DNA of 64,000 nt from Aphanomyces cochlioides (taxonomy: Eukaryota > Oomycota > Saprolegniomycetes > Saprolegniales > Verrucalvaceae): positions 1,054,001-1,118,000 of the forward strand of contig JAHQRK010000007.1 of assembly GCA_019828595.1 (NCBI GenBank). Direction: 5' to 3'. The translations under genes were made by a program, and so were the position numbers. Shown here one piece after another: positions 49,840 to 64,000 of this stretch. The notes under the pieces are model-generated. The model ran no database searches, was not told the DNA's origin, and saw nothing but the letters and a program-made list of their open reading frames with translations. Positions within the stretch are counted from its first letter, which is position 1. Every line of letters begins with the position of its first letter.

Positions 49840-50958
49840 ATGGCTGCTGCTACGGTTTGTTCCAACAAGATGGCGGTGGTGTGGGTCAACCCAACGACAA
49901 ACGAAGCAGGCGGCGTGGTCTTCCTCTCTGCAAGTGAACTCAATCAAGCCTCTAGTGTCGACTGCCTGGAGAACCACCTCAAGTCAAAGCTTCCGCTGCC
50001 CTCTCGAAGCAAGAGCTCCCTGAAGATGCACGGCCAACAATTGAAATGTCAAGACATCAGCTCGTACTTGCCACTGCTGCGCACGGACATTCCCCGTTTT
50101 GTGCTGTCGACTCGGACGCTGCCACTTCTCATTTCGCCTCCCTCTGGACAAACTGTCACTGTTTGGGTGAACCCAGCCCGGACTTTTGAGCACATGAAGC
50201 ACGAAATCAGCGCTGCTCTTGGCGTTCCTCCATCGGATCAACGACTGCTCTGCAATGGACGTGAGCTCCGGGGCCATCGTTCGATTGAGTCTGCTGGCTT
50301 GAAACCCTACTCGACAGTTCAGTTGGCCATGCGCCTTTTGGGTGGCGGCGGAGGCATGACGAAGCACTTGCGAGCGTACAAATTTGCCAACCTGACGCGT
50401 GACGACCTCCTAGTGCAGGTCCCTTTGACAACTGACGGCCCCGACTGGCTTACTGTGGAATGTGGATTGAGCATTGAAAGCGTTTGCAATAATGCCGACT
50501 GCGTCGCGTTCAACAAAGAAGTCATTTCACCGCAACACTTTGACGCGTTTAATCTCACGGCGCACAAAGTTGTCTGCCCCATGTGCTCATTTCAATGCAT
50601 TCCCCGCACGTGTGGCTTTTACGAATGCAAGTGGCGCTTTGAAGGCGTGCTCCATGGCTCTGGCATGCATTTCAGCAGCGAATGGACCGACGTCAGCAAT
50701 GACATGTATCACGTGTTTGATTGCTCGGAGGCGACGATGGTCAAGTGGCTGACTTTGGTCGTGTCTGTGCGTCCTCTGGATGTTGAAGAGTGTCCTGTTT
50801 GCTTTGAGCCTCTCTGCGAGGATATCCAACGCCTCGCTCCTCTGCCATGCAAGCATCCCGTGCACCGGTCGTGTATGGACGAATGGGATGTGATTTGCAA
50901 GATGCAAAATCAAAACCCAACCACGTGCCCTACCTGCCGCGCTCCTGTTTCAAGCTAA
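49840..50958 (+). CDS. ubiquitin-like/Cys-module/RING-H2 protein, copy 1
   Basis: 372 residues, single exon, ATG at 49840; an ATG at 49870 is an alternative. Order: an N-terminal domain with VWVNPTTNEAGG and SSYLPLLRT; a ubiquitin-like fold (about 95-168: HMKHEISAALGVPPSDQRLLCNGREL) ending in MRLLGGGGG; a Cys-rich module (ECGLSIESVCNNADCVAF, CPMC, TCGFYECKWRFEGV); and a C-terminal RING-H2 (CPVCFEPL, LPCKHPVHRSC, CPTCRAPV). RING-H2 fingers usually recruit E2 enzymes, so this is a likely E3 ubiquitin ligase. The internal ubiquitin-like domain with Gly-Gly in mid-chain is unusual. It could be cleaved by a deubiquitinase or act as an intramolecular mimic. Same layout as five copies downstream. 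Confidence 0.85.
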   Translation: MAAATVCSNKMAVVWVNPTTNEAGGVVFLSASELNQASSVDCLENHLKSKLPLPSRSKSSLKMHGQQLKCQDISSYLPLLRTDIPRFVLSTRTLPLLISPPSGQTVTVWVNPARTFEHMKHEISAALGVPPSDQRLLCNGRELRGHRSIESAGLKPYSTVQLAMRLLGGGGGMTKHLRAYKFANLTRDDLLVQVPLTTDGPDWLTVECGLSIESVCNNADCVAFNKEVISPQHFDAFNLTAHKVVCPMCSFQCIPRTCGFYECKWRFEGVLHGSGMHFSSEWTDVSNDMYHVFDCSEATMVKWLTLVVSVRPLDVEECPVCFEPLCEDIQRLAPLPCKHPVHRSCMDEWDVICKMQNQNPTTCPTCRAPVSS

Positions 50959-52079
50959 GCGAGGAGCTAGTCGACTGTCATGGAGCTCGTTTGTATTGCC
51001 TAAGTTCGTAGTATAGCAGCAGTCGTTTCAATGTTCATGGCTCCAAACTTTTGGCAAAGGACGGTGCTTGAGTACAATCAAAGTGGCGAAAGAATGGTTC
51101 AAAGAGATGGAAGGCCTGCCTGCCTGCTGCTGAGCGGCAAGGGAGAGTCGAGCTGGAAGAGTATTGTACTTGATGCGTCAAGGGGGATTCTTGTGTTGTT
51201 GGTGTCATGAGTTGTGGGAGTTTGATTTGCATTTCGAGTGAAGAGTAGTCAACCTTACTCCATGATGGGGGAAAGCGCGCGTGAGCAGTGGCCCACTAGC
51301 GCGTTGCGCTCAGACGTGGCTGGTTTGCTCCCTCGTACAGCGGCGGGTTCAGCCAAGCTCGCTTGATGCATGAGTTGATGGCTTGTTGATGGGCTGATGT
51401 TGTTGATTTGAGCGCCCCAACGACTCTTTCCGAGATGAACTTGATGTGAAAAGACACTGTAGACACCATGCACTGGAGCTTGGCGAGTTGGGCTGGACGT
51501 CGCGGGCGTTCCTGTCCAAAAAGTCACGCAATCGTAAACCTTACTTGATAGAAAGCATCAAGTAAGGTTTAGTGGTTGACAAGGGGCGGAGCAAGATGGA
51601 GCTTTTGATTTTGCTTTGCCCATTGCTGCATACACGAGGCAGAGTGCTCGCACGCTTGCCAGACGCCCCCCCCTGACTAACTGGCTTTGTATCTTCCCCT
51701 TTTGCGGCAAGAATCAAGATCTCATGGCGCCGTTCGTCCAACCCCTCACCTTCACACCCTTCATGTTTGGAGACGCTGCATGACTTGCAACTTGCGAGAG
51801 TTCACAAACCTTTCTGAGGGGGATCTCGGGGGAAGAGGGGCGTCAGGGGAAGGGGTGCATGGGGGGAGATGAGGGTGAACTAGGGAGGGGCTCCTTCTCG
51901 TCGTCGGGCGGACCTGAACTCGTAGCGCATCAATAAACGACAAGAAAGGAAACTACTGCTCAACACTTCCCGAGAATTTAGCCTCCGTTTTCTCATGAGA
52001 CTGTTCAACCTCCTAGTGCATCAGGCAGTTAGTTGAGGGGAGGCAACACGCAACTGTCATTTTGGAATTCTTGTTGCTC
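50959..52079. other. spacer in the UBL-RING array, with an inverted gene fragment
   Basis: No complete gene. The only recognised content is the inverted remnant at 51535-51670 (separate entry). Frames at 51255-51527 and 51687-51943 show no motif. Confidence 0.5.
51535..51670 (-). pseudogene. inverted 3'-end fragment of a UBL-RING copy
   Basis: Read on the minus strand, this matches the 3' end and flank of the copy at 52080-53005 (about 52868-53020): GAGCACTCTGCC, then AATGGGCAA, GCAAAATCAAAAG, CTTGCTCCGCCCC, and CAACCACTAA followed by CCTTACTTGATGCTTT. Parts are missing between the blocks. Its left end forms a perfect 15-bp inverted repeat with a 7-nt loop (arms 51535-51549 and 51557-51571), as at a fold-back breakpoint. 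Confidence 0.75.
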
Positions 52080-62761: not shown

Positions 62762-63004
62762 TCGCTGCCATGGAATTCAAAATCTCCGCCAGGACAATGC
62801 ATCGTCGTCGTCGTTCCGCCACCAACTTCAGCAGCTTGATAAGCATAAAACCTTGAGTAATACCGCCAGGGAAGGACTTCAAGTCTTGCTTGTCATCCTT
62901 GGCTAGCGTCGGCTTGGGCTCAAGGCTAGCAGGAGAGACCGTTGGAGTTTGGGACAGGGACGACGTGGTCAGCGAGGCTCAGTTTAGATTTTTCGACCAG
63001 AGCA

Positions 63005-64000
63005 ATGAGTGTATTAGTGCCTGTGCTGGTGACTGACGTCAAGGATGAAGAGGAGCCGCGCGTCGTCGACGTGGCTGTTCAGACGGAAGAGCTCGATGAA
63101 CTGACAGTCAAGCAATGGAAGAACAAGATTGCTGACGCGCTTGGACTGGAAGAATGCCTCATGACATTGCGATTCTATGGCCATCGTCTTTGTGAAGATG
63201 ACGAAGCCAAGCATTATCTCCCTTCGCTGCAACTTTGTCGTGGCATCCGTTGGATGTTTCGGTTCAATCGCTCGTCCTGTCGGGGGAATGCCATCCTCTA
63301 CTATGTCAAGATGCTCACGGGAAGAACAATTACATTACAAGGGAGCAGTAGCGACACGATTGAAGCTGTCAAACTGGACATTGAGGATGCTGAGGGTATT
63401 CCTCCAGTCCAACAGCGATTGATCTTTGCAGGCAAACAACTCGAAGATGAACAGACACTTGGCAACTACAACATCCAAAAGGAATCTACCTTGCATTTGG
63501 TGATGCCTCTTCGCGGAGGAGGAGCGCTCTTTGCCGATGTCGAGAACAGCCAGCACTTGCAGCAACACAGAGTGTCGTACGGCGGTCCCACGTGGCGCAC
63601 GCTTCGTCATGGCCTCAACATTGAAGGCAAATGCTTGAATCGACAGTGTCGGGCCTTTGGAAAGCTCGTGATTGAGCCCATTTTGTTGAATCCTTTCAAC
63701 TTGCTGAGCCACTCGATGAAATGTCCAATATGCCGCGCTCATGTGAAGCCCATCACGTGTGGGTTTTACCAATGTCGATGGCGGTTTGAAGGCGTGAAAG
63801 CCCCCTCGATGATGCAAATGTGCAGCGCGTGGTCTGTGGCGGACGGAGACAAGTACCATCGATTTAGCTCGGACGAGTGCAATCTTGTCGAGTGGGAAAG
63901 TCTCTTGATTATTCCAATGCCTCTGGGGGACGACTCGTGTGCGGTTTGCTACGGCAGTCTCAGTCGTCATACTCTTCTCCACCATCCCCCGTGCAACCAC
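63005..64000 (+). CDS. ubiquitin-like/Cys-module/RING protein, copy 6 (partial, runs off window)
   Basis: The ATG at 63005 opens a frame that stays open for 332 codons to the window edge. The N-terminal domain is shorter and divergent (MSVLVPVLVTDVKDEEEPRV...HYLPSLQ). The ubiquitin-like fold is the closest to real ubiquitin in the array: VKMLTGRTITL, then IPPVQQRLIFAGKQLEDEQ, NYNIQKESTLHLVMPLRGGG. The Cys module (GLNIEGKCLNRQC, CPICRAHVKPITCGFYQCRW) follows, and the RING begins (CAVCYGSL...PPCNH) as the window ends. No lesion seen. Confidence 0.85.
   Translation, partial: MSVLVPVLVTDVKDEEEPRVVDVAVQTEELDELTVKQWKNKIADALGLEECLMTLRFYGHRLCEDDEAKHYLPSLQLCRGIRWMFRFNRSSCRGNAILYYVKMLTGRTITLQGSSSDTIEAVKLDIEDAEGIPPVQQRLIFAGKQLEDEQTLGNYNIQKESTLHLVMPLRGGGALFADVENSQHLQQHRVSYGGPTWRTLRHGLNIEGKCLNRQCRAFGKLVIEPILLNPFNLLSHSMKCPICRAHVKPITCGFYQCRWRFEGVKAPSMMQMCSAWSVADGDKYHRFSSDECNLVEWESLLIIPMPLGDDSCAVCYGSLSRHTLLHHPPCNH

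What the first reader, a model, noticed from the sequence alone, without database searches (positions are those of the whole stretch)
49840..64000. Tandem array of proteins with an internal ubiquitin fold, a Cys-rich module and a RING-H2 finger
At least six genes share one plan: an N-terminal domain, a ubiquitin-like fold ending in G-G or R-G-G in mid-protein, a C-x4-C...CPMC...TCGFYxCxWRFEG module, and a C-terminal RING-H2. Putting a ubiquitin with a cleavable-looking tail in the same chain as a ligase RING suggests self-processing, intramolecular E2 loading or ubiquitin mimicry. Copies range from near-ubiquitin tails to degenerate ones, and three of six are intact and complete. From memory, the Cys module resembles one seen in other protist ubiquitin-like proteins, but I know of no described function.
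Basis: partly seen in the sequence, partly recalled or inferred. Interest (0 to 1): 0.8.

Follow-up and report, generated by a model that had tools for sequence, protein, structure and literature searches.

The report
Ubiquitin-RING gene array in a water mould
A water mould carries a small cluster of genes whose intact copies join two ubiquitin-like domains, an uncharacterised cysteine-rich module and a ubiquitin-ligase RING, and the "cut here" tail of the ubiquitin was kept while the rest drifted, which suggests a ubiquitin ligase made as a cleavable ubiquitin fusion and related to giant-virus proteins.

Summary
The array has seven head-to-tail units, six in the window and one just beyond it. 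Four are intact (A, D, E, F; F runs over the window edge), three broken (B, C, G). Pfam confirms the ubiquitin fold and RING-H2; all eight zinc ligands are present in the four intact copies. New here: (i) the N-terminal domain is probably a second, divergent ubiquitin-like domain, giving an ISG15-like pair; (ii) the Cys module has no Pfam family and no convincing PDB fold, but matches predicted giant-virus proteins ("Ring and ubiquitin domain protein", Barrevirus; "Ubiquitin", Pandoravirus salinus) at TM 0.91-0.92; (iii) across 16 Ub domains only Leu50, Gly75 and Gly76 never change, while an average position matches in 8.2 of 16. That favours selection on the tail. Best model: a FUBI-eS30-like precursor; cellular USP-type enzymes cut after Gly-Gly and free a Cys module-RING ligase. 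Main rival: an uncut protein whose ubiquitin activates its own RING in cis, as in the engineered UbArk2C. Neither is shown. Relatives already sit in databases, several without a name, and ubiquitin-RING fusions are published in algae, so this is a new variant, not a new kind.

The parts
49840..50958 (+). Unit A, intact gene, 372 aa: N-terminal UBL 49870-50115, ubiquitin-like 50119-50346 (tail RLLGG), Cys module 50377-50787, RING-H2 50788-50955
52080..53005 (+). Unit B, broken: N-terminal UBL and Ub (tail RLRGG) open, then loss of most of the Cys module, a change of frame and a stop inside the RING part
59013..59857 (+). Unit C, broken: N-terminal UBL absent, Ub (tail RIVGG), Cys-module and RING parts in different frames
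60304..61437 (+). Unit D, intact gene, 377 aa (a second possible start lies 8 codons on): N-terminal UBL 60328-60576, ubiquitin-like 60592-60819 (tail GRLVGG), Cys module 60868-61278, RING-H2 61279-61434
61604..62758 (+). Unit E, intact gene, 384 aa: N-terminal UBL from 61604, ubiquitin-like 61940-62167 (tail RLRGG), Cys module 62183-62593, RING-H2 62594-62755; likely orthologue of Aphanomyces euteiches AeNC1_003751, 92% identical
63005..64000 (+). Unit F, intact gene of 365 aa that runs to 64102 on the contig: N-terminal UBL, ubiquitin-like 63293-63520 (tail PLRGG), Cys module 63524-63934, RING-H2 63935 onward; likely orthologue of AeNC1_003752, 318 of 365 residues identical

Best explanation
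Each intact gene encodes a RING-H2 ubiquitin ligase made as a ubiquitin-like fusion precursor. The chain is UBL1 - Ub-like domain - flexible R-L-x-G-G tail - Cys module - RING. I infer that a cellular USP-type deubiquitinase cuts after Gly76, as for Ub-eS31, Ub-eL40 and FUBI-eS30. The front half would help the Cys-rich ligase half to fold or keep it inactive until release, and the freed Cys module-RING would recruit an E2 and ubiquitinate targets that the Cys module binds. Shown by computation: domain order, Ub fold, RING zinc ligands, tail conservation, a distinct predicted Cys-module structure. Inferred: zinc binding by the Cys module, cleavage, ligase activity, target binding.
For: Only L50, G75 and G76 are identical in 16 of 16 Ub domains (7 array units, 9 homologues); R72 and L73 in 15, R74 in 11, mean 8.2 per position. 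L50 lies in the fold; Gly75-76 do not (general knowledge), and the model has residues 168-199 of D below pLDDT 50, so fold alone does not explain the glycines. In the 9 homologues the Ub stands before the Cys module, or in P0009 before a module-like stretch. FUBI is a 36%-identical Ub relative with a GG tail, is cut from a fusion, and is not cut when GG is changed (PMC8354635, passages); it has Leu where Ub has R74 and Gly where Ub has L71 (PMC10611586, passages). A and G have L74; D and C have G71 and V74. The genome holds many USP-type (PF00443) domains: 57 matches, counted exon by exon. RING: 8 of 8 ligands in A, D, E, F; the residue after the last Cys, the linchpin position as I recall it, is Arg in A, D, E and His in F. 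Between species F's RING is 96%, its Cys module 90%, its Ub 78% identical.
Against: No cleavage data. R74 is lost in 5 of 16 and R72 in F (Pro), which many deubiquitinases and E1 would not like (from memory). The glycines could simply be a flexible hinge. In E the Ub is the best kept domain between species (77 of 80), unlike F. The 16 rows are not independent (E/P0001, F/P0014; A/B and C/D look alike by eye).
Confidence: 0.45

Rival explanations
1. The protein is not cut. The internal ubiquitin-like domain is a built-in regulatory ubiquitin that docks on its own RING and helps hold E2~ubiquitin in the closed, active state, a natural counterpart of the engineered UbArk2C fusion.
For: The engineered Ub-RING fusion UbArk2C transfers ubiquitin better than the RING alone, and residues T9, K11 and T12 of its ubiquitin contact the donor ubiquitin (PMC8897509, passages). 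It is among the 50 rows matched to the D model (7r70), there through its ubiquitin. RING-H2 present. F and E keep L8 and I/V44, and K11 is kept in 6 of 9 homologues.
Against: Here a Cys module of about 137 residues separates Ub and RING. The model has pTM 0.37, so domain packing is undefined. K11 is kept in 1 of 7 array units (B, broken), and A has P8 and A70. It gives no reason for invariant Gly75-Gly76; ubiquitin-like domains inside other proteins (Parkin, Rad23) lack GG (from memory).
Confidence: 0.3
2. The UBL pair is a docking arm for the proteasome or another ubiquitin receptor, and the GG stretch is only a flexible hinge, as in ordinary UBL-containing ligases.
For: Divergent Ub bodies, low-confidence linker, R74 and in F R72 lost.
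Against: A hinge does not need exactly Gly75-Gly76 in 16 of 16; the next residue varies (S in D and G, V in P0001).
Confidence: 0.13
3. The array is a decaying gene cluster with little present function.
For: 3 of 7 units are broken, and mobile elements lie between B and C. No expression evidence was available.
Against: 4 of 7 are intact; E (92%) and F (318 of 365) match two A. euteiches proteins with consecutive locus tags, with RINGs at 92% and 96%.
Confidence: 0.07

Closest known systems
Giant-virus 'Ring and ubiquitin domain protein' (Barrevirus A0A3G4ZQ93; also Pandoravirus inopinatum A0A0B5IXC8) and Pandoravirus salinus 'Ubiquitin' S4W648
   Same: The Cys-module model fits A0A3G4ZQ93 and S4W648 at TM 0.91 and 0.92 with 30 and 32% identity; they are also the two best viral matches of the full-length model, over 359 and 390 columns
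   Different: Full-length TM is only 0.32-0.37 because the domain packing is undefined. The viral chains are 434 (fragment) and 626 aa; their sequences were not read here, so domain order and tails were not checked. A0A0B5IXC8 matches more weakly (E 0.017, 56 columns)
FUBI-eS30 (FAU), Ub-eS31 and Ub-eL40 fusion precursors
   Same: Ub-like domain with GG tail set in front of another protein; FUBI is 36% identical to Ub with Leu at the R74 position (PMC8354635, PMC10611586, passages)
   Different: Partner is a RING protein, not a ribosomal protein; a probable second UBL stands in front; cleavage not shown
Ubiquitin-RING fusions of Bigelowiella natans and Guillardia theta
   Same: Ubiquitin units fused to a zinc RING finger in protists (PMC6332867, abstract and section 4)
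   Different: 145-273 aa with one or two ubiquitin monomers; the section read describes no Cys module
ISG15 and linear di-ubiquitin
   Same: Two ubiquitin folds in a row, as in the D model aligned over about residues 7-170; like ISG15, no GG after the first domain (ISG15 point from memory)
   Different: rmsd 11.8-12.7 Angstrom for the ISG15 rows and 6.5-13.1 for di-ubiquitin rows, so relative placement differs; ISG15 is not fused to a ligase (from memory)
UbArk2C (PDB 7r70)
   Same: Ubiquitin in the same chain as a RING
   Different: Engineered, no Cys module, ubiquitin fused straight to the RING piece

Membership tests
RING-H2 E3 ligase | C3H2C3 zinc ligands with RING spacing | tested here: met
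   8 of 8 ligands in A, D, E, F by pattern; PF13639 above cut-off in A, D, E
RING-H2 E3 ligase | Basic linchpin after the last zinc ligand (position recalled) | tested here: met
   Arg in 3 of 4 intact copies (A, D, E); F has His
RING-H2 E3 ligase | E2-dependent ubiquitin transfer | not testable with these tools
   needs a bench assay
Cleaved ubiquitin-like fusion precursor (Ub-eS31, Ub-eL40, FUBI-eS30) | Ub fold ending in GG before the partner | tested here: met
   PF00240 in 6 of 6 pieces; GG in 16 of 16 Ub domains
Cleaved ubiquitin-like fusion precursor (Ub-eS31, Ub-eL40, FUBI-eS30) | Full RLRGG tail | tested here: inconclusive
   R74 in 11 of 16, R72 in 15 of 16; FUBI itself has Leu at R74 (PMC10611586)
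Cleaved ubiquitin-like fusion precursor (Ub-eS31, Ub-eL40, FUBI-eS30) | Cleavage after GG | not testable with these tools
   no proteomics held
ISG15-like tandem ubiquitin-like protein | Two consecutive beta-grasp domains | tested here: inconclusive
   N-terminal strand/helix order fits, profile match to Ub P 71%, E 3.7e-5 over 43 columns, model aligned to ISG15 over 7-170; the N-terminal domain was not modelled or fold-searched alone
ISG15-like tandem ubiquitin-like protein | Conjugated to substrates through the C-terminal GG | not testable with these tools
   needs mass spectrometry
Ub - Cys module - RING proteins of giant viruses and protists | The same Cys-module fold | tested here: met
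   TM 0.91 and 0.92, E 4.3e-13 and 1.8e-12 to A0A3G4ZQ93 and S4W648, predicted models on both sides; sequence relatives in Saprolegnia, Tribonema and unnamed sources
UbArk2C-like cis-regulated RING | Ub docked on the RING of the same chain | tested here: inconclusive
   pTM 0.37, packing undefined

The most novel reading that the evidence does not exclude
One gene encodes both an ISG15-like modifier and its ligase: cleavage after R-L-x-G-G frees a two-domain UBL with a conjugation tail and a Cys module-RING ligase that attaches it or ubiquitin. Paralogues with drifting tails would be separate modifiers, and the sharing of the plan with giant viruses of protists would make it part of a host-virus contest, an independent counterpart of the ISG15 system.
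Probability: 0.1. Interest if true: 0.88.

Novelty: new variant of a known kind. Interest (0 to 1): 0.55.

Why it matters
It defines a compact, testable family in which a ubiquitin-like body has drifted far from ubiquitin while its processing tail stayed fixed, next to a Cys-rich module with no solved relative found here. If cleavage is shown, it adds a ligase to the proteins made as ubiquitin fusions. If not, it may be a natural version of an engineered self-activated ligase. The link to giant-virus proteins gives a lead on why protists keep it.

Full report
WHERE IT IS. The window is contig C67, bases 1054001-1118000, of an unnamed 76.2 Mb genome in 94 contigs. It is probably an Aphanomyces or close relative: copy E is 92% identical to A. 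euteiches AeNC1_003751 and copy F 318 of 365 residues to AeNC1_003752, two proteins with consecutive tags. Seven units lie head to tail on the + strand. A, D, E and F are intact single open frames. B, C and G are broken: B lost most of its Cys module, changes frame and has a stop; C lacks its N-terminal domain and changes frame; G, outside the window, changes frame and has stops. A genome search with full-length D gives 28 matches; the 16 outside the array cover only the Ub part or the RING part. The Cys module alone gives 7 matches, one in each unit. The four intact copies are only 34-41% identical to each other (main alignments), so the duplications look old, and E and F were already separate before the split from A. 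euteiches (both forks 100/100).

DOMAINS. Pfam: ubiquitin in 6 of 6 pieces scanned, E from 1.3e-8 to 5.5e-29; RING-H2 above cut-off in A, D and E (F was cut by the window edge there). All eight zinc ligands are present in A, D, E and F, and in the 7 homologues put to the same pattern, which allows one or two residues between the histidines. The residue after the last ligand is Arg in A, D and E and His in F.

CYS MODULE. About 137 residues with six conserved Cys, C-x4-C, CPxC and TC[GA]FxxC, plus invariant W, GL and N (10 rows; P0001 and P0003 left out). The model of E's module has mean pLDDT 86.9 and pTM 0.77, mainly strands. No credible Pfam family, no sequence relative in PDB, no PDB fold above noise. 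In predicted viral structures four matches reach E 0.001, the best being Barrevirus A0A3G4ZQ93 (TM 0.91, 30% identity) and Pandoravirus salinus S4W648 (TM 0.92, 32%); Pandoravirus inopinatum A0A0B5IXC8 follows at E 0.017. With full-length D the same two lead, at E 1.1e-26 and 3.7e-28 but TM 0.37 and 0.32. Sequence relatives: Saprolegnia parasitica SPRG_16091 (whose protein lacks the CPxC-TCGF stretch), Tribonema minus, and several proteins without organism names. Zinc binding by the module is inferred from its Cys pattern. P0007 has Ub and module with no RING (it may be incomplete), so the Ub-module pair may be the core.

THE TAIL. I aligned 16 Ub domains (7 units and 9 homologues, P0001, P0003-P0009, P0014) to the genome's own ubiquitin (polyubiquitin of C10). 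P0002 and P0010-P0013 were left out, having no module. Only L50, G75 and G76 are identical in 16 of 16; R72 and L73 in 15, R74 in 11; the mean position matches in 8.2. Among the 7 array units alone the invariant positions are the same three, against a mean of 2.9 of 7. Array Ub domains keep 23 to 52 of 76 residues; among the seven, K48 and K63 are kept in F only. Between the two species F's Ub is its least conserved domain (61 of 78) and its RING the most (53 of 55), whereas E's Ub is its best kept (77 of 80). So the bodies drift, at different rates, and the tail's GG does not. Rows are related, so the numbers are not independent trials.

READING. A fixed Gly-Gly behind a drifting body is what FUBI-eS30 shows: 36% identity to ubiquitin, a GG tail, cleavage that needs GG (PMC8354635, passages seen), Leu at the R74 position and Gly at the L71 position (PMC10611586, passages seen). 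Copies D and C carry G71 and V74; A and G carry L74. The genome has many USP-type deubiquitinase domains (57 exon-level matches of PF00443). I therefore put cleavage first at 0.45. The uncut cis-regulator has a good engineered precedent: fusing ubiquitin to the Ark2C RING raises ubiquitin transfer (PMC8897509, passages seen). The Ub K11 that contacts the donor ubiquitin there is kept in 6 of 9 homologues but in 1 of 7 array units, the broken B, and the model defines no docking. No tool here could show cleavage, ligase activity or expression.

KNOWN OR NEW. Ubiquitin-RING fusions are published in B. natans and G. theta (PMC6332867, abstract and section 4 read), and giant-virus proteins with ubiquitin and RING are named in databases. 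Not found in my searches: a study of this architecture, of the Cys module, or of the array. I call it a new variant of a known kind.

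Noticed in passing
window 53163-53777: A roughly 620-base element with 42-base terminal inverted repeats (83% complementary) lies after unit B; 10 other near-full-length copies at 95-98% identity are spread over the genome, so a recently active miniature DNA transposon is likely.
   Followed up: partly
window 54012-58195 (-): Ty3/gypsy-type element between B and C: a gag/capsid frame and a pol frame with reverse transcriptase, RNase H and integrase zinc-binding domains (the integrase core match is below its cut-off). 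No direct repeats of 40 bases or more were found around it, so its ends are unclear.
   Followed up: partly
window 48052-49083 (+): Open frame just upstream of the array with five WRKY19-type zinc finger matches (PF24906, E 3.4e-42).
   Followed up: no
window 49141-49698 (+): Open frame of 186 aa with a Cys-rich end (CSCGNSCKCPGCPKHN) between the WRKY19-type frame and unit A; no Pfam match at E 0.001. It may be the 3' part of the upstream gene.
   Followed up: no
L009 3550-6144 (contig C67, downstream of unit G): Protein kinase open frame of 864 aa (PF07714, E 1.9e-57) follows the array on the far side.
   Followed up: no
P0003 (Saprolegnia parasitica SPRG_16091): The public protein lacks the CPxC to TCGF stretch of the Cys module, which looks like a wrong splice prediction.
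   Followed up: no
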